Positions 7,625 to 57,378 of a DNA stretch of 64,000 nucleotides are shown one piece after another; position 1 is the first letter of the stretch, and each line of letters opens with the position of its first letter. The notes beneath the pieces are model-generated. The model had not been told where the DNA came from and searched no databases. It was given only the letters and a program-made list of their open reading frames with translations. The position numbers and the translations under genes were made by a program. The DNA comes from Salipiger bermudensis (GTDB lineage: Bacteria > Pseudomonadota > Alphaproteobacteria > Rhodobacterales > Rhodobacteraceae), in NCBI RefSeq assembly GCF_019801965.1, contig NZ_JAHVIA010000008.1, positions 124,001-188,000 on the forward strand, given 5' to 3'.

Positions 7625-8272
7625 TCAGGCGATCCCGGCCTCGCCAAGCAGGCGGGCGGCCTCGGCATAAGGGGTGGCCAGCGCGTCCTTGTCCTCGCCG
7701 GGGTGGAAGCGCATCCGGGTGGTGGTGTTCATCGGGCGCGGCTCCAGGATCCGCACCTGCGGGCCGGTCTTAGCGCTTTCGGCCTGCCAGGAGCGCGCCA
7801 GAGCGATCTGGGCGGCCTTGGTGGCGCCGTAATTGCCGTAGAAGCGCTCTCCGGCATGGGCATCGTCGAAGAACAGCGCCTGGCCGGTCTCGCCCAGAAG
7901 CGGCGCCATGAACGGCACCAGGTAGCCCATCGGTGCGACATTGATGTCGAGCGCCTTCTGGAAATCCTTCGGCTCCATGTGGCTCGCCGGCGCCAGCGGC
8001 GCGGCGTGGATCGCCGTGTGGACCCAGAGCGCGGCGCCGCCCCAGCGGTCATAGACCGAGCGGCAGAGCTGCGCCATGGCGTCTTGCTTGGTGATGTCCA
8101 TGGGCGCCAGCGTGGCGCTGCCGCCGCGGGCCTTGATGCGGTCGTCGAGATCCTCGAGCCCGCCCACGGTGCGGGCGACGGCGACGACGTGGTAGCGGGG
8201 CGCGAGCGCCTCGGCGAGGGCGAAGCCCAGGCCGCGCGAGGCGCCGGTGACGATGGCAATCTGGTCGGTCAT
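7625..8272 (-). CDS. short-chain dehydrogenase/reductase-like protein
   Basis: Rossmann-fold SDR family member, 215 residues. The N-terminal nucleotide motif VTGASRGLG (8-16) and the YxxxK pair (Tyr148, Lys152 in YGATK) are present. Two usual features are missing: the NNAG segment reads VHTAIHA, and the catalytic Ser about 13 residues before the Tyr is replaced by Phe/Asp (FFDD). Activity may therefore be altered, or the protein may act as a binding protein. ATG 8272 is preferred over a 12-residue longer start because it places the glycine motif at the normal position. The substrate is unknown. Confidence 0.8.
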
Positions 8273-8304
8273 GCCTGCCCCATTGGCCCGCGCGGCGGGG
8301 ATTG

Positions 8305-8568
8305 TCAACGTCCGCCGAGTTGCTCGAGCCAGGTCGCCTTGCCGCCGCGCGCCAGCGCGATGCGGCCATCGTCGATCGCCACCACCTCGCGGCCATCGAC
8401 GCGATCGCCGAGCGCCACGGTGTCGAGCCGGCCGCTGCGCAGCCGCACCAGCGCCTCCGGCGCGCGCGCGTCGCCGAACACGCCGAGCAGCATCGGGCCG
8501 TTGCGCGGCAGGTCAACCGATTGGGTGGCGCGTTCTGCGACCTGTCTGGGGGTCTGTTGCTGAGCCAT
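8305..8568 (-). CDS. small PilP/GspC-like domain protein
   Basis: Short protein of 87 residues. The C-terminal part (GRLDTVALGDRVDGREVV followed by AIDDGRIALARGG) resembles the beta-rich inner-membrane-linker domain of PilP and GspC, which join pilus or secretin machinery. There is no signal peptide and no neighbouring pilus gene, so the role is unclear. The start is decided by the ribosome site: AGGAGG at 8578-8583 abuts an ATG at 8577 but stands nine bases before ATG 8568, which is therefore chosen. It sits 32 bases upstream of the SDR gene on the same strand. Confidence 0.6.
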   Translation of the reverse strand: MAQQQTPRQVAERATQSVDLPRNGPMLLGVFGDARAPEALVRLRSGRLDTVALGDRVDGREVVAIDDGRIALARGGKATWLEQLGGR

Positions 8569-8734
8569 TCTGGCCATCCTCCTGTATGGTCCCCTTAGAA
8601 TGGGCGGCTCAATAAGGCCCGAGGCAGAGACAGGAAAGATGGGGCACCGTCACGCCGCCGTGAGCGCAGGGATCACCGGCGGCGGATCGGCGGGAAGGAG
8701 CCGGCGCGCCGGCAGGGGCGCGCCGATGCGACGC

Positions 8735-10201
8735 TTATTGCGCCGCCTTGAGCTTGAAGCCCTTCTCGATCATGTCTGCGGGCTCGACCGGGTATTCGCC
8801 GGAGAAGCAGGCATCGCAATACTGCGGACAGCTGTTGTTGCGGCCCTCGGCCTCGCCCGCGGCGCGGTAGAGGCCGTCGAGCGAGATGAACTTCAGCGAG
8901 TCGACGCCCAGATGATCGCGCATCTCGTCCTCGGACATGGTCGCGGCCAGTAGCTTCTCGCGCTGGGGCGTGTCGACGCCGTAGAAGCAGGGCCATGCGG
9001 TCGGCGGGGAGGCGATGCGGAAATGCACCTCCGCGGCGCCGGCATCGAGGATCATCTCCTTGATCTTGCGCGAGGTGGTGCCGCGCACCACCGAGTCGTC
9101 GACCAGCACCACGCGCTTGCCGCGGATCAGGGCGCGGTTGACGTTGAGCTTGAGGCGCACGCCCATGTTGCGGATCTGCTCGGTCGGCTCGATGAAGGTC
9201 CGGCCCATGTACTGGTTGCGGATGATCCCCATGCCGTAGGGGATGCCGCTCTCGTGGGCGTAGCCGATCGCCGCCGGGGTGCCGCTGTCGGGGACGGGAC
9301 AGACGAGATCAGCCTCGATCGGCGCCTCGCGGGCCAGCTCGACGCCGATCTGGCGGCGGGTCTCGTAGACCGAGCGGCCGCCGATGATCGAATCGGGGCG
9401 CGAGAAATAGACATGCTCGAAGATGCAGAAACGCGAGTTGCGGCTGCGGAAGGGGTGCGTGCTCTCGACGCCCTTCTCGGTGATCACCACCATCTCGCCG
9501 GGCTCGATCTCGCGCACGTATTCGGCGCCGATGATGTCGAGCGCACAGGTCTCCGACGACAGGCACCAGCCGTCGCCGACCTTGCCGAGCACGAGCGGGC
9601 GGACGCCGAGCGCGTCGCGCACGCCGATCAGCTTGGTGCGGGTCATGGCGACGACCGAGAAGGCGCCCTCGACGCGGCGCAGCGCGTCTTCCATGCGGGC
9701 CGGGATGTCGCGCTGCAGCGAGCGCGCCATCAGGTGGATGATGCATTCGCTGTCCGAAGAGCTCTGGAAGATCGAGCCGCGCTCGATCAGCTCGCGGCGC
9801 AGGGCCTCGGCATTGGTGATGTTGCCATTATGGGCTATCGCCGCGCCGCCCATCGAGAACTCGCCGAAGAACGGCTGCACGTCGCGGATCTGCGCGCCCT
9901 TGGAGCCGGCGGTCGAGTAGCGGACATGGCCGATGGCCAGCGCCCCGGGCAGGGTCTCCATCAGCGATTGCTTGGTGAAGTTGTCGCGGACATAGCCGAA
10001 GCGGCGGGCGGAGTTGAAGCCGTGCTCGGGATGGTAGGAGACGATGCCGCCGGCCTCCTGGCCGCGGTGTTGCAGCGCATGCAGGCCGAGGGCAACGAAA
10101 TTGGCGGCGTCAGTGACGCCGATCATTCCGAAGACCCCGCATTCCTCATGCAGCTTGTCGCCATCTACGGCATCGAAATCGAAGGGATGGGCGGGGGGCA
10201 T
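8735..10201 (-). CDS. purF: amidophosphoribosyltransferase
   Basis: First committed enzyme of purine synthesis: PRPP plus glutamine gives 5-phosphoribosylamine. The glutaminase nucleophile is Cys21 in EECGVFGMIG, exposed after removal of a 20-residue propeptide. The PRPP loop VVLVDDSVVRGTTSRKI is intact. The clustered cysteines near the C-terminus (SCPQYCDACFSG) mark the Bacillus-type enzyme with an oxygen-sensitive 4Fe-4S cluster. ATG 10201 gives 488 residues; a 57-residue longer frame lacks family similarity and is rejected. It is divergent from cydA across 222 bases. No strong ribosome site is visible at this ATG. Confidence 0.92.
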   Translation of the reverse strand: MPPAHPFDFDAVDGDKLHEECGVFGMIGVTDAANFVALGLHALQHRGQEAGGIVSYHPEHGFNSARRFGYVRDNFTKQSLMETLPGALAIGHVRYSTAGSKGAQIRDVQPFFGEFSMGGAAIAHNGNITNAEALRRELIERGSIFQSSSDSECIIHLMARSLQRDIPARMEDALRRVEGAFSVVAMTRTKLIGVRDALGVRPLVLGKVGDGWCLSSETCALDIIGAEYVREIEPGEMVVITEKGVESTHPFRSRNSRFCIFEHVYFSRPDSIIGGRSVYETRRQIGVELAREAPIEADLVCPVPDSGTPAAIGYAHESGIPYGMGIIRNQYMGRTFIEPTEQIRNMGVRLKLNVNRALIRGKRVVLVDDSVVRGTTSRKIKEMILDAGAAEVHFRIASPPTAWPCFYGVDTPQREKLLAATMSEDEMRDHLGVDSLKFISLDGLYRAAGEAEGRNNSCPQYCDACFSGEYPVEPADMIEKGFKLKAAQ

Positions 10202-15439: not shown

Positions 15440-16297
15440 TTATTCCGCCGCGCGGCGAGACAGCATCGCCACCACCGGCTCCGGGCGGGCGGTCTCGTGC
15501 TCGTCGTCCTCGTAATGCTCGGGGCCCCCGACCCAGCCGGAATGCACGTTGCTCAGGGTGGCGATGTGCTGCGGCGGCTGCTGCGGCTCGGAAACGCGGA
15601 TCTCGGGCAGGATCGCCTCGAGCTGGTCGCAGAGCCGGGCGAGCTGCGACTCGGCCACGTCTTCTTCCAGCTCGACGCGCATGTGCCAGCTCTGGATCTC
15701 GTTGGCGACGCGCTTGGCTTCCTCGAGGCGGATGTTGAAATCCTCGATCTCCTGCTGGCGGGCGGTGAGGAAATCGCGGGCGCGCTGCACCTTGCTGTCG
15801 GAATAGACCTCGGCCAGCTCGTGCGAGACATGGCTCATCTGCGCCGCGACCTCGAGCACCGAGGGCTCCAGATCGCCGAGATCGGGGTGATCGCGGAGGA
15901 AGGCGATGCGCTCGCGCACCGAGTCGAACTCAGACGACATGCGGAACACGCCCTCGCGGTCGGCGCGATGCGAGGCGGCATAGGCACGGGCGACATCGCG
16001 CATCGTCATGTGAAAGCGCCGGTGCGAGTTTTCCAGCGTCATTATGCGGGCATTGGAGGGCAGGAAGAACATCAGACCCAGCGCCAGCGCGGTCAGGCCG
16101 AGCTGGATGTAGATGCCGGCCTGGGGCACCACCTGGTCACCGAAGGTGAGCGGCATGGTGAGCCAGTCGACAAGCCCGAACGCGGCAGCGGCGGAATAGG
16201 CGCCGAGCCCGAGACCGAGGGACAGGATCAGCAGGAACGCGACCCGCTGCATGAGATACTGGACGAGAAAAGCCGTTGCACGCATCTGCGACATCAT
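15440..16297 (-). CDS. membrane coiled-coil protein, function unknown
   Basis: I do not recognise a characterised family. The 285-residue protein has two N-terminal membrane helices (about 17-42 and 62-80), a long helical and charged middle (about 85-235, rich in Glu/Arg/Gln and probably coiled coil), and a Pro/Glu/His-rich tail. Closely placed Met codons (16297, 16294, 16285) leave the exact start uncertain, and no clear ribosome site is visible. It lies directly upstream of radA, which suggests co-expression. Confidence 0.7.
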   Translation of the reverse strand: MMSQMRATAFLVQYLMQRVAFLLILSLGLGLGAYSAAAAFGLVDWLTMPLTFGDQVVPQAGIYIQLGLTALALGLMFFLPSNARIMTLENSHRRFHMTMRDVARAYAASHRADREGVFRMSSEFDSVRERIAFLRDHPDLGDLEPSVLEVAAQMSHVSHELAEVYSDSKVQRARDFLTARQQEIEDFNIRLEEAKRVANEIQSWHMRVELEEDVAESQLARLCDQLEAILPEIRVSEPQQPPQHIATLSNVHSGWVGGPEHYEDDEHETARPEPVVAMLSRRAAE

Positions 16298-46468: not shown

Positions 46469-46810
46469 GGGCTTTCTGCCGGCGGCCGGGGCTTGGCGCT
46501 CCGGCCTGCCATGGTGCCGTCCCGGGCAAGACATGCGGCGCGCTGTTCCTATCGGCACCCAAGATCGCGATTTCACGATCCCCCCGACATAGCGATCCCA
46601 CCGGCAAAGAGGCCCGCCGCGACCGTGCCTCTTGCAAGGTTTCGCCACGTGACCGGCGCCTGAGGCTCTCGGTTCAAAGGCCGCGCGTGCGGGGGCTGCG
46701 TCTGAGAGGAGCGTTTGTTGCGGGACGGGCGTCGTGGCGCCCGCCGCAAGCGGAGCACGGTTTTAAAGCGAAGGTTGGCGGCCTTTAGACGATGGCGGCC
46801 CTTAAGACGC
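46469..46810. other. intergenic region without recognised gene
   Basis: Between the converging holC and gap genes. It contains a hairpin AAGAGGC...GCCTCTT (about 46606-46632) and GC-rich inverted segments near 46720-46750, but no family-like reading frame, RNA gene or mobile element that I can recognise. Confidence 0.6.
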
Positions 46811-49483: not shown

Positions 49484-51502
49484 TCAGAGCAGCGACTTGG
49501 CTTTCGCGGCCACGCCCTCGGCGGTGATGCCGAACTGCTCGTAGAGGGTTTCGGCCGGGGCCGACGCGCCGAAGCCGTCCATGCCCACGAAGCCCGCCTT
49601 GGCCTCGCGGCCGCGCTCGCCCAGCAGCCACTTGTCCCAGCCGAAGCGGGTCGCGGCTTCCACGGCCACGCGCACCGGTCCACCCGGCAGCACGCGCTTG
49701 CGGTAGGCCTCGTCCTGCGCCTCGAAGAGCTCGAAGCAGGGCATGGAGACCACGCGCGTGCCGATACCCTCGGCCTGCAGCAGATCGCGCGCCTCGAGCG
49801 CGATGGCGACCTCGGAGCCGGTGGCCATCAGGATGACCTGGCGCTTGCCCTCGGCATCGGCGAGCACGTAGGCGCCCTTTTCGACGAGGTTGTTGGTCTT
49901 GTGCTGGTGGCGCACAGTCGGCACGTTCTGACGCGTCAGCGAGAGCACCGAGGGGGTGCTCTTCTGGGTCAGCGCGATCTCCCAGGCCTCGGCGGTCTCG
50001 ACCACGTCGGCGGGGCGGAACACCAGGGTGTTCGGCGTCGCGCGCGAGATCGCCAGGTGCTCGATCGGCTGGTGGGTCGGGCCGTCTTCGCCAAGGCCGA
50101 TGCTGTCATGGGTCATGACGAAGACCGTCGGCGTCTGCTGCAGCGCGGCCAGGCGCATCGCCGGGCGGGCATAGTCGGTGAAGGCCATGAATGTGCCGCC
50201 ATAGGGGCGGATGCCGCCATGCAGGCCCATGCCGTTCATCGCCGAGGCCATGCCGTGCTCGCGGATGCCCCAGTAGACGTAGCGGCCACCGCGGCTGTCG
50301 GTGTCGAACACGCCCATGTCGCCGGTCTTGGTGTTGTTCGAGCCGGTGAGGTCGGCGGAGCCGCCCACGGTCTCGGGCATCACCGGGTTGATCACCTCGA
50401 GCACCATCTCCGAGGCCTTGCGGGTCGCGACCTTGGGGCCGTTCTCGGAGCTCTGCTTCTTCAGCGCGCGGACGACGGAGGAGAGCTTCTTGGGCGCCTC
50501 GCCGGCCATGGTGCGGGCGAACTCGGCCTGCTTGCGGTCGGACATGGCGGCGATGCGGCCGTCCCAGGCCTCGCGCTCGGCGGCACCGCGGCTGCCGATC
50601 TCTTCCCACCAGCTCTTGATCTCGGCCGGGACCTCGAACGGGCCGGTGGTCCAGCCCCAGCCCGCCTTGGCGTCGGCGTTCTGCTCGGCATTGGTCAGCG
50701 CGCCGTGGCCCTTGGAGGTGTCCTGCGCGGCGTGACCCAGCGCGATGTGGGTCTTGCAGGCGATCATCGACGGCTTGTCGGTGACCTTCTTGGCGGCGGT
50801 GATGGCGGCGTCGATGGCCTCGGGATCGTGGCCGTCGATCTCCTGCACGTGCCAGCCCGACGCCTTGAAGCGCGCCACCTGGTCGGTGCGGTCCGACAGC
50901 GAGACCTTGCCGTCGATGGTGATGTCGTTGTTGTCCCACATCACGATCAGGCGGCCGAGCTCGTAGCGGCCGGCGAGGCCGAGGGCCTCCTGGCTCACGC
51001 CTTCCATCAGGCAGCCGTCACCGGCGATGACATAGGTGTGGTGGTTGATCGCGGCCTTGCCGAAGCGGGCGCGCAGGATCTCTTCCGCCATGGCGAAGCC
51101 GACCGAATGCGCGATGCCCTGGCCGAGCGGGCCGGTGGTCATCTCGATGGCGTCGGCGTGGAAGTTCTCCGGGTGGCCCGCAGTGCGCGAGCCCCACTGG
51201 CGGAAGTTCTTCACCTGATCGAGGGTGATCTGCTCGTCGCCGCTGAGATAGAGCAGCGCATAGAGCAGCATCGAGCCGTGGCCTGCCGACAGGATGAAGC
51301 GGTCGCGATCCGGCCAGGTCGGGTTCTTCGCGTCGAATTTCAGGTGCTTCGACCACAGCACGGTCGCCACGTCGGCCATGCCGATGGGCATGCCGGAATG
51401 GCCCGAATTGGCCGCGGCGACCGCGTCGAGCGTCAGTGCGCGGATGGCAGTGGCACGCATCCAGTGATCCGGATGTGCATCTCGAAGGGCATTGATATCC
51501 AC
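49484..51502 (-). CDS. tkt: transketolase
   Basis: TPP enzyme of the pentose phosphate and Calvin-type carbon shuffling, 672 residues. The TPP motif [18 protein letters not shown] ending in NN ([10 protein letters not shown]) and the conserved [14 protein letters not shown] and [14 protein letters not shown] segments are present. The start is GTG 51502 with GAGGAG about seven bases upstream. In rhizobia tkt lies beside a coiled-coil gene, zapA and gap; here they are also neighbours, with tkt divergent from the coiled-coil gene. Confidence 0.96.
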
Positions 51503-51536
51503 GGGAACTCCTCTCTATCCCAGAGCCGTTTCGGGG

Positions 51537-51579
51537 CTAATAGCAGCGTTGGGCCGAAGATCAAGCGTTAGCGCCGTCA
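51537..51579 (-). promoter_or_regulatory. tkt promoter with LacI-type operator-like site
   Basis: Minus strand -35 TTGATC (51564-51559), 16-base spacer, -10 TATTAG (51542-51537). CGTTAGCGCCGTCA (51566-51579) abuts the -35 box and matches about 10 of 14 positions of TGTTAGCGCTAACA. Confidence 0.5.
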
Positions 51580-51733
51580 AGGCGGCGCCGGTGGGTGAAT
51601 TCCCGCCCGTAACCACTTGGGACATATGGGGCGCAATTTCCCCCGGCGCTTGATAAACTGTTCCGAAACGGGGCGGGTTCGATTCGCAACGATCGACGCG
51701 ACAGGCCTCGAAGGCAGATCGAGAGAGGGCAAG

Positions 51734-52276
51734 ATGAGCCAGATTGACGAGTTGCAGTCACGGATGACGCGGGCGCTCGACCGCATCTCAAAGGGCGTCG
51801 AGGCGCTCGAGGCGCCGCAGCCGGCGCTCGAGCCGGTGGATGACGGCTCCGCCGAGGAGATCGCGCGGCTGAACGCGGCGCTCGAGGATGAGAAGATGGC
51901 CAACGCCCAGCTCGAGGCGCGGGTCAGGTCGCTGCACGACCAGCTCGAGGCGCAGCCCGAGGCCCCAGAGCCTGCCGAGCCCGACGCCGCGCTGCAGGAG
52001 CAGATCGCGGCGCAGCGCGAGGGCATGCAGGCGCTCGACGGCGAGCTCCAGCGCCTGCGCCAGGCCAATGACGCGCTGCTCAAGAGCTGCACCGAGATGC
52101 GCGAGGCGCTGGCCGAGAACCTCGGCGAGCCGCATCTGATCAACCAGGCGATGCTGGCCGAGCTCGAGGCGCTACGCGCTGCCCGCGCCGCCGAGGCGGC
52201 CGAGGCCCGCGCGGTGCTCGGCGCACTGGAGCCGATGCTGGCGCAGGCCGCCGGCGAAGAGGAGGCGGCGCAATGA
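51734..52276 (+). CDS. coiled-coil protein upstream of zapA
   Basis: A 180-residue acidic, Ala/Glu/Gln/Leu-rich protein that is almost entirely predicted coiled coil. No membrane segment or known catalytic motif is seen. It starts MSQIDELQSRMTRALDRISK and overlaps zapA by ATGA. In other alphaproteobacteria a DUF4164-type coiled-coil gene occupies this spot. A ZapB-like partner role for ZapA is inferred from position and shape. Confidence 0.75.
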   Translation: MSQIDELQSRMTRALDRISKGVEALEAPQPALEPVDDGSAEEIARLNAALEDEKMANAQLEARVRSLHDQLEAQPEAPEPAEPDAALQEQIAAQREGMQALDGELQRLRQANDALLKSCTEMREALAENLGEPHLINQAMLAELEALRAARAAEAAEARAVLGALEPMLAQAAGEEEAAQ

Positions 52277-52677
52277 GCCAGCAGATCGAAGTTCAGATCA
52301 ACATCGGCGGCCGGACCTTCGACGTCGCCTGCCAGCAGGGCGAGGAGCAATACCTGCTCACCGCCGCGCGCATGCTCGACACCGAGGCCTCGGTGCTGGT
52401 CGACCAGATCGGCCGGATGCCCGAGGCGCGGATGCTGCTGATGTCGGGGCTGATGCTGGCCGACAAGACCGCCGGTCTCGAGGACCGTCTGCGCGAGGCC
52501 GAGGACAAGCTGGGCGAGATGGCCGAGGAACTGCGCGAGCTCCGCGAGCGGCCCTTGCCGGCGCCGGAGAAGGTCGAGGTCCCGGTGATCCCGGCGAGCG
52601 TGTCGGACACCCTGGCCGAGCTTGCCGCGCGCGCCGAGGCGGTGGCCGAGGAGATCGAGGCCAAGGCAGCGGGCTGA
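52273..52677 (+). CDS. zapA: cell division protein ZapA
   Basis: FtsZ-ring stabiliser, 134 residues. The N-terminal ZapA pattern IEVQINIGGRTFDVACQQGE, then EQYLLTAARMLD, is followed by a long helix (coiled coil to about 95) and an acidic Ala-rich tail that is longer than in E. coli ZapA. ATG 52273 overlaps the coiled-coil gene. A terminator follows at once; no 6S RNA was found directly downstream. Confidence 0.92.
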   Translation: MSQQIEVQINIGGRTFDVACQQGEEQYLLTAARMLDTEASVLVDQIGRMPEARMLLMSGLMLADKTAGLEDRLREAEDKLGEMAEELRELRERPLPAPEKVEVPVIPASVSDTLAELAARAEAVAEEIEAKAAG

Positions 52678-52691
52678 GGGCTCTTTCGGGC

Positions 52692-52734
52692 TTGAGATTG
52701 GGGAGGGGCGGTGACCGGTGGTCGCCGCCTTTTT
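52692..52734 (+). terminator. zapA terminator, left member of an inverted pair
   Basis: GGCGGTGACC-GGT-GGTCGCCGCC hairpin (52707-52729, one G-U pair) followed by TTTTT. The 40-odd bases from GAGATTGGGGAGG onward are nearly identical to the inverted sequence at 54651-54690. Confidence 0.9.
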
Positions 52735-53044
52735 CGTGGGTCGCATTTTTGAAGGCTTGGCTTTGAGAGCGCGCTCGGGTCTATAGCGCGAGCGCACAGT
52801 TCCGTGCTAGTTCGATAAATAAATGACCGTTTTGCGAAAGTTCCGACCCTTTCAAGGTCGATGGAAGCCGTTTCGGACAATGTGCCCTATCGGCCCAAAG
52901 CGGCCGCTCATGAAGCTCTCGGCCGATGGCCGCTTTCATCCGCCAAGATGATATGTCAGTTCGCATATCCTTGGGAAGCCTTAAACGCTGGTAGCACCTC
53001 CGAAAGGTGCATCCTATGCTTGTAAGTACACCCACATGAAAAAT
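52735..53044. other. spacer left of the KAP gene
   Basis: Transitional composition, A+T-rich toward the right. Contains AAAGCGGCC...GGCCGCTTT (about 52897-52937), GCGCTCG...CGAGCGC (about 52774-52795) and a small hairpin near 52997. No coding frame with family similarity, tRNA or obvious attachment site is seen. Confidence 0.5.
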
Positions 53045-54400
53045 CTAAACCCTAAATATTTCGACCCAATCTTTCTGGATTCCGGGGGCTATTGATTTCC
53101 TATCCCGCACTCCAAATCGGTCAAACCGCTCCCCAAGGTTCTCAGACCAAGAAGGTAAGCCTTCAACATTTTCTATATCTTCTCTCCCACAACAAAAAAT
53201 GATTGTCGCGAGCCAAGTCGTAACCTCGTGATTGTAGGCGGAATTGTAAGTATCATCGATTCTTTCTATTGTTTTTTCTTTGGGCGCTGCGAGATAATCT
53301 CGGAGTTCCGACGTCTGGGCATCTCCAGAGACAAGTTTCGCGTGAAGCTGAGGGTCTACAACCGAAGTGACAATAAGTGCGCAGAGGATATCTATATATC
53401 CGTCCTTGAAGTTTTTCTTGTGAACCTCATCAGGAACCAAAGCAACCTTGGAAAAGACCTTTCCTATATCTCTAAGTGAGACATCACGGCTATCAACGAC
53501 GCACTTTAGCAGGCTTACACAACGGTCTGAAACACGCTGAGGAAGCTCCATGTCGGAAATAAGTTTGGATGCATATTTTGAAAATACACTTACTTCGCCG
53601 CGGCCACCGATCGCACGAGGGAGGGAGAACGATACATTTATGAATTTTCGGAGGTAACTTTCTGCGTCAATGTCTGCGCCGTACCTTGCTTTGACACTGT
53701 TCTCCAATGCTTTACCATTGACACCGAGTATAAAGTGGACTTTTGGCACCGAGAAAAAGTGCTTAATAACTTCCAGAACGGTAAGGGCATAGTCTGGTCG
53801 GCAACGGTCTAACTCGTCTACTACAATAACGATCGGTGCAGCTGATTTCTGGGTTAGTTCTGACAGCAAGTTTCGAAAATCATGCATCGCATCTTTTCGG
53901 ACTCTTTCAACCTCCCATAGGTCTTGAACCGCATTTTTGGCTTCGCCGCTCGCTGCGTCCGCGATCACATCTCCCATTTCATCTAAATACTGTTTCGCAC
54001 CAAACGTCGCCACCGAAAGAGCAATACCCAATGCTGGCTTTGCAAGTTTTGTCGCAACGGTCTTCCATTTTTTTACTGTTTCGGCTTGCTCATCTGGGAG
54101 GCGCGCGCTTACCGCAGTGATGATGGAAACGAGAGGATCGGTGAGATAATCGTTTTCAAATGCATCAAAATATATAGTTGTGGCCGTGCCGTTGTTTTCT
54201 GCAGTATGTGCTGCAACCCACCTTTTGAGAAAGAATGTTTTTCCAGATCCCCACTTGTCATCGAGCGCAAGGACAACCGGATTTTCTATTCGCTCAACAA
54301 GTTCAGACAGCTGGTTTGAAATGGACTTTCGCTCAAGAACATCATCTTCGAACCCAGTTTCATATAAGACGACGTCATCATCCTGCGGAAATAGTTTCAT
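53045..54400 (-). CDS. KAP-family P-loop NTPase (PifA-like), orphan
   Basis: Predicted STAND-like NTPase of the KAP family, named after Kidins220/ARMS and PifA, the plasmid F protein that excludes phage T7. It has 451 residues. Walker A is KWGSGKTFFLKRW (Lys54, Thr55) and Walker B is VIVVDELDRCRP (Asp195, Glu196); SYLRKFINVSFSLP (248-261) is the typical post-sensor block. A weakly hydrophobic stretch (119-138) replaces the usual paired membrane helices. The C-terminal 170 residues match nothing I know and may hold the effector. Base use differs sharply from the neighbours: 24 of 60 bases at 53041-53100 are G or C, against 42 of 60 at 52321-52380 in zapA. ATG 54400 has AGAAGG upstream; a longer GC-rich frame is rejected. 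Probably acquired by transfer; an antiphage role is inferred. Confidence 0.85.
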   Translation of the reverse strand: MKLFPQDDDVVLYETGFEDDVLERKSISNQLSELVERIENPVVLALDDKWGSGKTFFLKRWVAAHTAENNGTATTIYFDAFENDYLTDPLVSIITAVSARLPDEQAETVKKWKTVATKLAKPALGIALSVATFGAKQYLDEMGDVIADAASGEAKNAVQDLWEVERVRKDAMHDFRNLLSELTQKSAAPIVIVVDELDRCRPDYALTVLEVIKHFFSVPKVHFILGVNGKALENSVKARYGADIDAESYLRKFINVSFSLPRAIGGRGEVSVFSKYASKLISDMELPQRVSDRCVSLLKCVVDSRDVSLRDIGKVFSKVALVPDEVHKKNFKDGYIDILCALIVTSVVDPQLHAKLVSGDAQTSELRDYLAAPKEKTIERIDDTYNSAYNHEVTTWLATIIFCCGREDIENVEGLPSWSENLGERFDRFGVRDRKSIAPGIQKDWVEIFRV

Positions 54401-54650
54401 TTGTGGCCTTCTCAAAGCATTGGTTTCATCAAGTAGTGCCGGAGAAGATGAACCTCGTCGACCCATGTCAGACACTTTGCAGCGATGGATGTACTTCGCA
54501 TAGCTGTCTTTGGTGCGGATTGCAGCGAATGCACACTTCCCCGCCCTTCCTGCCAAGACAGGCGACCTGTGCCAAGCCGAGCGCGAACGTCGTGAACGGG
54601 CTGTAAGCTGACATTTTTCTGACGACCGACAAGCTCCAGCCCCGAAAGTT
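54401..54650. other. spacer right of the KAP gene, probable promoter region
   Basis: Lies between the KAP start and the eno terminator. It should hold the KAP promoter, but no convincing -35/-10 pair stands out. A 66-codon minus-strand frame at 54468-54668 runs into the eno terminator and is not believed. Confidence 0.45.
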
Positions 54651-54690
54651 AAAAAGGGCGGCAACCACAGGTCACCGCCCCTCCACAATC
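54651..54690 (-). terminator. eno terminator, right member of an inverted pair
   Basis: Minus-strand GGGCGGTGACC-TGT-GGTTGCCGCCC hairpin (54680-54656, two or three wobble pairs) followed by TTTTT, about 35 bases past the eno stop. It is the inverted near-copy of 52692-52734. Confidence 0.9.
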
Positions 54691-54723
54691 TCTATCAAAC
54701 GCCCCCGCTGGAGCGTCCAGCCC

Positions 54724-56107
<1,384 letters not shown>

Positions 56108-56229
56108 TTTTCTTTCGCGGCGCCTCGGTTTTGCCAAATGCCGCGGCGCAGCTATTGTTTGTGGAGACAGGGAGGCAACAGGCAACGAACGCGGGCGCGA
56201 GAGGAGGCGTGCACCGGCAGGGAGCACGC

Positions 56230-57378
56230 ATGGAAGACGAACTGGATCAGATCGAGCAGCAGGTCGCCGAGATCACCACCGATATCGAGGCGGTGATCCC
56301 TGTGCTGCCACATTGGGTGATGCCGGTGTCGGTGGTTGTGGCGTTCTTCGTGCTGGGCGTGCTGGTGTTCCGGCTGGTCTACGCGATCCTCAACCGCACG
56401 GTCGCCGGGAAGGATCTGTTCTGGCGCAGCCTCGTCGCCCGGACCCGCCGCCCGCTGCGGTTGGCGCTGGTGGTGGCGGCGCTCTTCGTGGGCGTCGCGG
56501 TGGCGCCGCTGAGCCCGGAGCAGACCGATTTCGGCCAGCACGCGCTGCTCATCGCGTTCATGGTGCTGGTGGCCTGGGCGCTGCACACGGCGCTGCACAT
56601 CTGGACCACGGTGCACCTGCGCAAGTTCACCCTGGACTCCGAGGACAACTACCTCGCCCGCAAGCACGTCACCCAGAGCCGCATCATGGTGCGGCTGGCG
56701 GGCTGGGTGATCGTCATCGTGGCCACCGCGGCGATCCTGATGACCTTCGAGGGCGTGCGGCAATGGGGCGTGTCGCTGCTGGCGGCGGGCGGCGCTGCGG
56801 GCATCGTGGTGGGCTTTGCCTTCCAGCCGGTGCTGAAGAACCTCATCGCCGGCATCCAACTCGCGGTCACCCAGCCGATCCGCATCGACGACGCGGTGAT
56901 CGTCGAGGGCGAGTGGGGCTGGGTCGAGGAGATCACCGGCACATACGTGGTGATCAAGATCTGGGACTGGCGCCGGCTGGTGGTGCCGCTGAGCTATTTC
57001 ATCGAGCAGCCGTTCCAGAACTGGACCCGCGACAGCTCCTCGCTGATCGGCGGCGTGCTGCTCTACCTCGACCACTGCGCCGATATCAAACGCCTGCGCG
57101 CCAAGACCGAGGAGGTCTGCCGCAACTCGGCGCTCTGGGACGGCAATGTCTGCCACGTGCAGGTCAACGACTTCCGCGAGAGGGTGATGGAGGTGCGGGT
57201 GCTGGCCTCGGCCCGCAACGCGCCGCGGACCTATGATCTGCGCTGCGAAATCCGTGAGGAGCTGATCACCTGGATCCAGAAGGAGATGCCCGAGGCCCTG
57301 CCGCGCACCCGCGAGACGGTGTCGGTGGACGGCGGCAACCGGCCGCTGCCGGCGGGGATCGAGGTGCTGGGCGGATAG
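56230..57378 (+). CDS. MscS-family mechanosensitive ion channel
   Basis: Membrane channel-type protein of 382 residues, likely releasing solutes on osmotic downshock. A coiled N-terminus is followed by four to five helices, a pore-like Gly/Ala-rich segment (SLLAAGGAAGIVVGFAFQP) and the cytoplasmic beta domain (QPIRIDDAVIVEGEWGWVEE). It belongs to the larger YbdG/MscM-like variants rather than minimal MscS. ATG 56230 starts just before the coiled N-terminus; a 50-residue longer frame is unsupported. Confidence 0.88.
   Translation: MEDELDQIEQQVAEITTDIEAVIPVLPHWVMPVSVVVAFFVLGVLVFRLVYAILNRTVAGKDLFWRSLVARTRRPLRLALVVAALFVGVAVAPLSPEQTDFGQHALLIAFMVLVAWALHTALHIWTTVHLRKFTLDSEDNYLARKHVTQSRIMVRLAGWVIVIVATAAILMTFEGVRQWGVSLLAAGGAAGIVVGFAFQPVLKNLIAGIQLAVTQPIRIDDAVIVEGEWGWVEEITGTYVVIKIWDWRRLVVPLSYFIEQPFQNWTRDSSSLIGGVLLYLDHCADIKRLRAKTEEVCRNSALWDGNVCHVQVNDFRERVMEVRVLASARNAPRTYDLRCEIREELITWIQKEMPEALPRTRETVSVDGGNRPLPAGIEVLGG

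What the first reader, a model, noticed from the sequence alone, without database searches (positions are those of the whole stretch)
52735..54650. A+T-rich orphan KAP-family NTPase between zapA and eno: candidate single-gene defence system
The sequence shows a 451-residue P-loop protein with KWGSGKTFFLKRW and VIVVDELDRCRP in a stretch far poorer in G+C than its neighbours (24/60 and 28/60 in sampled lines against 42/60 in zapA). KAP NTPases include PifA, which excludes phage T7. This copy is short, lacks the clear paired membrane helices, and has an unassigned C-terminal domain of about 170 residues. With no mobile genes nearby it looks like cargo in a safe site between two core-gene terminators.
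Basis: partly seen in the sequence, partly recalled or inferred. Interest (0 to 1): 0.75.

Follow-up and report, generated by a model that had tools for sequence, protein, structure and literature searches.

The report
Single-gene KAP ATPase, likely phage defence
A foreign, A+T-rich gene for an ATPase of a catalogued candidate phage-defence family sits between two core genes, at a spot where the two closest relatives each carry a different insert; it is a good but untested example of a known kind of thing.

Summary
A 451-residue KAP-family ATPase gene lies at 53045-54400 (minus strand) between zapA and eno. Its G+C is 46% (neighbours 67-70%), and it lies between two terminator hairpins that form a 41-nt inverted repeat seen only here in the genome. 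The protein matches a catalogued phage-defence candidate family (PADLOC PDC-S20, E 1e-86); PifA and QatA align with its ATPase domain only.

In about 27-31 kb of aligned sequence this is the only break above 300 bp where all three differ. The junction was found only in this genus, so it is no family-wide hot spot, and one cargo is no known defence gene.

Relatives of the protein occur beside PARIS, in a prophage, or alone among ordinary genes. The model is AAA+-like, with a helical hairpin between Walker A and B, no membrane-grade segment there, and a C-terminal domain without a significant match among solved structures. Defence itself is untested.

The parts
52273..52677 (+). zapA, left flanking core gene (convergent with eno)
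   Evidence: ORF 134 aa; Pfam ZapA E 1.5e-16; a match in 20 of 20 genus genomes
52694..52734 (+). hairpin with T-run = likely terminator of zapA; left arm of the 41-nt inverted repeat
   Evidence: the hairpin pattern occurs only at this pair in the own genome; shared with G005, not recognisable in G004
52890..53044 (.). 3' flank of the KAP gene that travels with it (77.5% identity with Limimaricola litoreus L006 over 52890-54529)
53045..54400 (-). KAP-family P-loop ATPase, PADLOC PDC-S20, 451 aa
   Evidence: PF07693 E 1.1e-37; PDC-S20 E 1.2e-86; phrog_8614 E 3.2e-77; purifying selection
54236..54256 (-). Walker A, KWGSGKT, residues 49-55 (G51, G53, K54 invariant in 40 of 40 aligned sequences)
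53843..54094 (-). helical hairpin insert, residues 103-186, with a low-confidence, mildly hydrophobic tip (within 123-155) holding G134, invariant in 40 of 40 aligned sequences
53795..53830 (-). Walker B, VIVVDELDRCRP, residues 191-202
53048..53617 (-). C-terminal part, residues 262-451: helices with R310 (SLRD, invariant in 40 of 40), then a clade-specific tail (371-451); no significant match to a solved structure
54401..54529 (-). 5' flank shared with L006 (and with L004 up to 54506); presumed to hold the promoter, though the sigma-70 consensus scan found no site there
54652..54692 (-). hairpin with T-run = likely terminator of eno; right arm of the inverted repeat; kept in own, G004 and G005
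54724..56019 (-). eno, right flanking core gene
   Evidence: ORF 431 aa (a TTG start was chosen mechanically); Pfam Enolase_C E 4e-130; 89-99.8% identical in the 19 other genus genomes
52682..54651 (.). segment replaced as a block in relatives (52682-54651 against G004; 52770-54598 against G005)

Best explanation
The gene is a horizontally acquired, single-gene phage-defence candidate of the PDC-S20 branch of KAP ATPases. Shown: it is intact, under purifying selection, foreign in composition, present in only part of its relatives, and placed as a self-contained block between the terminators of zapA and eno, where two sister species carry other blocks. Inferred: the protein is an AAA+/STAND-like switch that assembles into a ring (solved RdrA is a heptamer, and the KAP protein QatA is reported as a heptamer or octamer that binds DNA). 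It would sense a phage component or phage DNA through its C-terminal helical domain and act through ATP-driven rearrangement of the ring, with the helical hairpin, at the place where other KAPs have membrane helices (recalled), as the working or contacting part. Blocks at this site are probably exchanged by homologous recombination through the conserved flanks, since I saw no integrase, tRNA or target duplication there. My estimates: defence role 0.75, ring 0.55, hairpin as the active element 0.3.
For: PADLOC PDC-S20 E 1.2e-86 over residues 14-402; phrog_8614. In Limimaricola litoreus a protein 81% identical is separated by one gene (DUF1643) from AriAB of PARIS (E 3e-138), and is followed by an HNH protein and further on a DpdF/helicase-like protein. 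Other relatives lie in a prophage-like stretch with a baseplate-hub gene (L008), in a Vibrio phage with three genes between it and the integrase, in 12 viral contigs at 29-33% identity, in 162 of 72,556 plasmid records, all below 60% identity, and near a type IIG restriction enzyme (L010). Neighbours of 21 homologue loci gave PADLOC hits at E <= 1e-25 in at least five loci, against two dGTPase-family hits in 137 control ORFs. Patchy: 40 of 394 family genomes (own included; many matches distant or partial), and one full-length copy in 20 genus genomes. Gene G+C is below that of its flanks in 53 of 54 loci. Site: 17 short intervals; two other cargoes; only break above 300 bp where all three differ, in 27-31 kb aligned. 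Fold: best solved match RdrA of RADAR, E 1e-5, then ORC/Cdc6. QatA ring and DNA binding: passages of PMC13279940.
Against: I found no phage test of this branch. PDC-S20 is only a candidate label. Close relatives L004, L005 and L007 stand among ordinary genes: ten of their neighbours gave no PADLOC hit at E <= 1e-10, and those that Pfam names are RimO-like, AsmA, LGT, VirJ-domain, YbjN, P5C reductase, Ppx/GppA and TrkH proteins. One of the two alternative cargoes (DUF4214/RTX) is not a known defence gene, and the Panacea pair has no PADLOC match. No enzymatic effector domain is recognisable. Foldseek TM-scores to RdrA are at most 0.44 on the query length, so ring assembly rests on analogy. QatA could be removed from qatABCD without loss of protection against some phages, so a KAP protein need not be the decisive part. 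Some neighbour hits (UvrD-like helicase, prophage methyltransferase) are not strictly defence genes, and the gene caller for that test was crude.
Confidence: 0.7

Rival explanations
1. A mobile-element accessory protein that serves the element (DNA handling, plasmid or prophage maintenance, superinfection exclusion) rather than the host, stranded here when the carrier was lost.
For: Relatives in prophage-like stretches, viral contigs and plasmids; KAP proteins are often plasmid- or phage-borne (recalled). Superinfection exclusion by a prophage would itself be a form of phage defence.
Against: The closest relatives (80-84%) lie on contigs of 61 kb to 1.5 Mb where I recognised no phage genes in the translations (by eye; partly checked), and one is in a defence island. 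I saw no remnant of a carrier element at this site; the nearest integrase match is about 62 kb away.
Confidence: 0.18
2. A housekeeping or stress-related KAP ATPase of the host with no role in conflict, A+T-rich only because it was recently acquired.
For: No neighbour in the block, no operon, no defence gene at this site in this genome; the C-terminal domain has no known effector. Over the wider family gene G+C does rise with flank G+C (slope 0.54, r 0.68, 47 loci), so some lineages do adapt to their hosts.
Against: No full-length copy in 19 of 20 genus genomes and no match in 354 of 394 family genomes; composition constant at 45.5-45.8% in the four closest hosts with flanks of 53-68%; defence and prophage context of relatives.
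Confidence: 0.07
3. The inverted repeat marks a mobile element (terminal inverted repeats) and the gene is its cargo or its mobilisation protein.
For: 41-nt, 90% inverted repeat exactly around the block, unique to this pair in the genome.
Against: The repeat is two terminators in convergent orientation; the right arm stays with eno when the cargo differs (G004, G005), the left arm stays in G005 and is not recognisable in G004. The nearest relatives of the gene elsewhere share 1.4-1.6 kb with it but not the hairpins. No target duplication was seen by eye. The repeat belongs to the site, not to the cargo.
Confidence: 0.05

Closest known systems
PDC-S20 (PADLOC-DB 2.0.0 phage defence candidate, models PDLC04956-04959)
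   Same: Single-gene KAP protein; four models hit, best E 1.2e-86 over residues 14-402 of 451
   Different: The first 13 and last 49 residues lie outside the matched stretch; no experimental test of the family was found
PifA of plasmid F
   Same: KAP ATPase domain, E 1.9e-20, residues 25-262
QatA of qatABCD
   Same: KAP ATPase domain, E 2e-18 (PADLOC) and 5e-20 (NCBIfam); [quoted passage not shown]
   Different: 71.7 bits against a curated cut-off of 600; QatA works beside QatB, QatC and QatD, and no further gene lies between zapA and eno; 451 aa against models of 593-646 positions
Tmn (transmembrane NTPase)
   Same: KAP family NTPase with anti-phage activity (passages of PMC11846954)
   Different: Tmn has two transmembrane segments; here the insert is a helical hairpin in which no 19-residue window reaches 1.6 in any of 40 aligned sequences (highest 1.59, L062)
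RdrA of RADAR
   Same: Best solved-structure match of the model, E 1.1e-5, heptameric ring ATPase
   Different: Low TM-score (at most 0.44 on the query length), 12-15% identity; no RdrB-like partner gene in the block
Core defence hotspots (Pseudomonas aeruginosa cDHS1 and cDHS2)
   Same: Variable cargo between two conserved core genes, not obviously part of a mobile element; exchange by recombination through the flanks is proposed (passages of PMC10250203)
   Different: Here only 3 of 20 genomes are occupied, blocks are 1.5-2.7 kb, the junction was found only in this genus, and one cargo is no known defence gene

Membership tests
KAP P-loop NTPases (PF07693) | Score above the Pfam gathering cut-off over the P-loop domain | tested here: met
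   130.3 bits against a cut-off of 20, residues 24-289
KAP P-loop NTPases (PF07693) | Membrane-spanning segments inserted in the P-loop domain (named in the title of Aravind 2004, seen in a reference list; the paper is not held; that only part of the family has them is recalled) | tested here: not met
   In the insert no 19-residue window reaches 1.6 in any of 40 aligned sequences (highest 1.59, L062). Elsewhere in the protein 5 of 40 do (L005, L008, L025, L026, L066), the own protein not. By recall a feature of part of the family, so it does not remove membership.
PDC-S20 | Match to the PADLOC models over most of their length | tested here: met
   E 1.2e-86, model positions 13-395 of 464; PADLOC's own score and coverage rules were not available
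PDC-S20 | Protects against phage | not testable with these tools
   Needs plating assays
PifA | Full-length similarity to PifA (720 positions) | tested here: not met
   Only positions 22-255 of 720 align
QatA / qatABCD | NCBIfam equivalog cut-off 600 bits; adjacent qatB, qatC, qatD | tested here: not met
   71.7 bits; no further gene of comparable size between zapA and eno
Tmn | KAP NTPase with two transmembrane segments | tested here: not met
   no Tmn model appears among the ten PADLOC hits, though I do not know whether that library holds one
RADAR RdrA | RdrA-type ATPase with an RdrB deaminase partner | tested here: not met
   Fold similarity only; no RdrA model among the ten PADLOC hits; no second gene in the block
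Core-gene-flanked defence hot spot | Same flanks, different inserts, empty in some relatives | tested here: met
   17 of 20 short, 3 of 20 occupied by three different cargoes
Core-gene-flanked defence hot spot | Cargo mainly defence systems | tested here: inconclusive
   One PDC-S20, one Panacea-antitoxin pair without a PADLOC match, one DUF4214/RTX-repeat protein

The most novel reading that the evidence does not exclude
PDC-S20 is a one-gene, ring-forming immune machine in which the paired membrane helices of Tmn-like KAPs have been reduced to a conditional spike: the hairpin 103-186, whose tip carries a mildly hydrophobic stretch and an A-T-x-G motif with a glycine invariant in 40 of 40 aligned sequences, is released on sensing and contacts or perforates the membrane, so sensor, switch and effector are one 451-residue chain.
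Probability: 0.1. Interest if true: 0.65.

Novelty: new member of a known kind. Interest (0 to 1): 0.4.

Why it matters
It gives a compact candidate (one gene of 1.36 kb; the block shared with its relative in L. litoreus has about 130 bp upstream and 155 bp downstream) for testing whether the soluble KAP branch defends against phage at all, for which I found no report. The comparison of three sister species at one site, between two terminators, is a convenient natural example of how single defence-type genes may be swapped without an integrase. The predicted hairpin in place of membrane helices makes a direct question testable: whether the membrane part of KAP defence proteins is dispensable.

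Tried and rejected
Rejected: (1) an RNA element in the interval: Rfam, 0 matches at E <= 1 over 51400-56300. (2) A housekeeping fold for the C-terminus: no convincing sequence match in Pfam (best E 0.14) or the PDB (best E 0.43) and no Foldseek match below E 1.9. (3) A family-wide zapA-eno hot spot: of 60 other genomes searched 57 had a zapA match; the regions of 40 were fetched and none had a convergent eno. Limits: L082 held only about 2.1 kb downstream of zapA, L085 and L099 about 6 kb; L088 has an eno on the same strand 7.9 kb away. (4) A dispersed terminator repeat as the cause of the inverted repeat: the hairpin pattern occurs once on each strand of the genome, here only. (5) Plasmid origin by near-identical DNA: no megablast match. 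(6) A Tmn-type membrane protein. (7) Two papers as possible tests of this branch: PMC12724215 concerns a ParA-like ATPase and PMC13092281 does not contain the word KAP or PifA (passages).

Weak or dropped: neighbour statistics used a crude ORF caller; one ORF (L006:11374-16902) was left out of the pooled scan for the size limit and had been scanned apart, and the control used 137 of 157 ORFs listed. The pooled list shows 25 of 34 families; hits named RTasSbcB and SoFic were not traced to a locus. Ten of the 138 were then scanned singly; 4 of the 10 had hits. Alignment A1 holds 39 of the 53 homologues extracted; partial or very distant ones were left out. In one search the regression used 47 of 54 loci (flank at least 2 kb); among the 7 dropped, L069 is the only locus whose gene is not below its flank (0.540 against 0.537). 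In one search only matches of 200 bases or more were kept and only breaks above 300 bases listed; the part of the window before 34426 (G004) or 30684 (G005) was not compared. One search failed on a file name and was repeated.

Full report
What is there. An ORF of 451 codons runs from 54400 to 53045 on the minus strand. The region is at 44-49% G+C in the 500-base windows from 52750 to 54499, between flanks of 62-74%. The gene itself has 45.8% G+C and 43% at third positions, against 93-94% at third positions in zapA and eno. Against its three closest relatives the gene shows dN/dS 0.107-0.193 with 145-190 third-position changes among 451 codons, so it has been kept as a protein.

The brackets. 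zapA (plus) and eno (minus), both confirmed by Pfam, converge. Each is followed by a strong hairpin with a T-run. The two hairpins are a 41-nt inverted repeat with 90% complementarity, and the hairpin pattern occurs once on each strand in the whole genome, here only. In the 17 genus genomes with short intervals I see, by eye, mostly one hairpin rather than two. In the own genome and G005 both arms are present, in G004 only the right one is recognisable. The repeat thus belongs to the site and looks like a duplicated terminator; how it was duplicated is open.

The site in relatives. The genus sample has 20 genomes. In 17 the zapA-eno interval is 90-348 bp. In the own genome and the two relatives with the most similar ZapA (G004 99%, G005 97%; next 87%) it is about 2.0, 2.8 and 1.7 kb. 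G004 carries a 652-residue protein with DUF4214 and RTX repeats; G005 carries a 196-residue SocA/Panacea-type antitoxin (Pfam E 3e-16) with a 127-residue partner whose reading frame overlaps it by 8 nt, stop codon included, and which matches no Pfam or PADLOC family at E <= 0.01. Panacea antitoxins pair with many toxins and occur in phages (abstract of PMC8832971). The antitoxin was absent from the four other genomes searched. The KAP gene is found full-length in the own genome only; two further genus genomes have distant matches to the ATPase domain (23-26% identity). Over about 27 kb (G004) and 31 kb (G005) aligned at 89-90% identity, breaks of more than 300 bp are few: the zapA-eno block, a 37-kb segment present in both relatives and missing from the own window at 46469-46804, and, for G005, one stretch of nearly equal length (295 against 313 bp). 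Only at zapA-eno do all three differ. Outside the genus the junction was not found: none of 40 fetched zapA regions (of 57 other genomes with a match) has a convergent eno next to it within the fetched stretch.

The protein family. Pfam: KAP_NTPase, E 1.1e-37, residues 24-289. PADLOC: four PDC-S20 models, best E 1.2e-86 over 14-402; PifA and QatA align only with the ATPase domain. PHROGs: phrog_8614, unknown function, E 3.2e-77. 'PDC' stands for phage defence candidate (passages of PMC11514479). The name PDC-S20 occurs in no paper of the searched library, and searches for KAP proteins in defence listed Tmn and QatA work but no test of this branch that I could see in titles, abstracts or the passages read.

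Where relatives live. One scan of species genomes gave 24 loci, the closest 80-84% identical in Litoreibacter arenae, Limimaricola litoreus and an uncultured Rhodobacteraceae bacterium. The family sample had a match in 40 of 394 genomes, the own included and many of them distant or partial. The L. litoreus copy is separated by one gene from a fused AriAB of PARIS (E 3e-138), followed by an HNH protein, with a DpdF/helicase-like protein further on. The KLH11 copy lies near phage-type genes including a baseplate hub. A Tabrizicola copy is near a type IIG restriction enzyme. The L. arenae, L005 and Paracoccus (L007) copies stand among ordinary genes: RimO-like and AsmA; LGT, VirJ-domain, YbjN and P5C reductase; Ppx/GppA and TrkH, and ten of their neighbours gave no PADLOC hit at E <= 1e-10. 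Phage collection: 5 of 50,697 records (one of them a 582-kb Salmonella contig); plasmids: 162 of 72,556, of which 2 cover at least 80% of the query; viral contigs: 12 loci at 29-33% identity. In a Vibrio phage three genes lie between it and the integrase. PADLOC hits at E <= 1e-25 among 138 neighbour ORFs were found in at least five of 21 loci (L006, L008, L010, L022, L025), against 2 dGTPase-family members among 137 control ORFs around zapA; the UvrD-like helicase and the prophage methyltransferase in that list are not proof of defence. The DNA shared with L006 runs from 52890 to 54529, so about 130 bp upstream and 155 bp downstream travelled with the gene. No sigma-70-like site was found in that upstream part.

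Composition. The four closest copies have 45.5-45.8% G+C although their flanks range from 53 to 68%, while their synonymous sites have diverged (dS 0.63-1.17). Across 54 loci the gene is below its flank in 53. This fits a gene that keeps moving and has not adapted to its hosts. Against a strict form of that reading, gene G+C does rise with flank G+C over the wider family (slope 0.54, r 0.68, 47 loci), and selection for low G+C is not excluded.

Structure. The AlphaFold2 model from 40 sequences has mean pLDDT 83 and pTM 0.78. The core is P-loop/AAA+-like. Between Walker A and B two long helices (103-138 and 146-186) form a hairpin; its tip (123-155) is below pLDDT 50, yet carries a glycine (G134) invariant in 40 of 40 sequences and a T at 85%. 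This is the place of the membrane helices in other KAP proteins (recalled), but no segment of the insert reaches a Kyte-Doolittle mean of 1.6 over 19 residues in any of 40 sequences (highest 1.59 in L062); elsewhere in the chain 5 of 40 do, the own protein not. R310 in SLRD is invariant in 40 of 40; I read it as a sensor-2-like or finger arginine (inference). The last 81 residues are poorly conserved (mean top-residue frequency 0.24), though most of them are confidently modelled in the closest group (C-terminal model: pLDDT 89, pTM 0.87). Foldseek against the PDB puts RdrA of RADAR first (E 1.1e-5), followed by ORC/Cdc6 and FtsH AAA+ domains; the C-terminal model alone has no match below E 1.9. 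Among viral predicted structures the best is a KAP protein of a Megaviridae sample.

How it most likely works. Shown by others: the KAP protein QatA binds single- and double-stranded DNA and appears as a heptamer or octamer, but qatABCD without QatA still protects against some phages (passages of PMC13279940); Tmn, a KAP with two membrane segments, blocks several phages by an unknown mechanism (passages of PMC11846954). Inferred for this protein: an ATP-driven ring whose variable C-terminal helices sense a phage cue and whose hairpin makes the decisive contact. Because the C-terminal tail varies most, and the core most resists change (top-residue frequency 0.60-0.69, hairpin tip 0.48, hairpin arms 0.39-0.41), I place sensing in the tail and action in the core and hairpin tip. 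The fate of the cell (abortive or not) cannot be told from sequence.

Verdict. The gene is a new member of a catalogued candidate family, at a small exchange site found only in this genus and not restricted to defence genes. Function and mechanism remain to be tested.

Noticed in passing
window 46469-46804: Both closest relatives carry about 37 kb between sequences that are 0.33 kb apart in the own genome: a large deletion here or a shared insertion there; content not examined.
   Followed up: no
L081 16094-17057 (G005, zapA-eno site): A SocA/Panacea-type antitoxin gene with an overlapping 127-residue partner that matches no Pfam or PADLOC family at E <= 0.01: a candidate toxin-antitoxin pair with an unassigned partner.
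   Followed up: partly
L080 2606-4561 (G004, zapA-eno site): A 652-residue DUF4214/RTX-repeat protein as the alternative cargo.
   Followed up: no
L007 about 15690-15786 and 8001-9359: In an uncultured Paracoccus the KAP gene (62%) lies roughly 6 kb from a stretch similar to the 3' end of zapA, although the immediate neighbours differ; coincidence or a recurrent neighbourhood.
   Followed up: no
window 52859-52960 and 54530-54640: The non-coding parts beside the block look like imperfect palindromes of a kind I recall from intergenic regions of this group; no close copies in the own genome.
   Followed up: no
L006 2590-16902: Limimaricola litoreus defence island: AriAB (PARIS), DUF1643 protein, the KAP homologue, an HNH protein and a 1843-residue protein with DpdF-like and UvrD/GajB-like helicase parts. 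The last looks like an unusual helicase fusion.
   Followed up: partly
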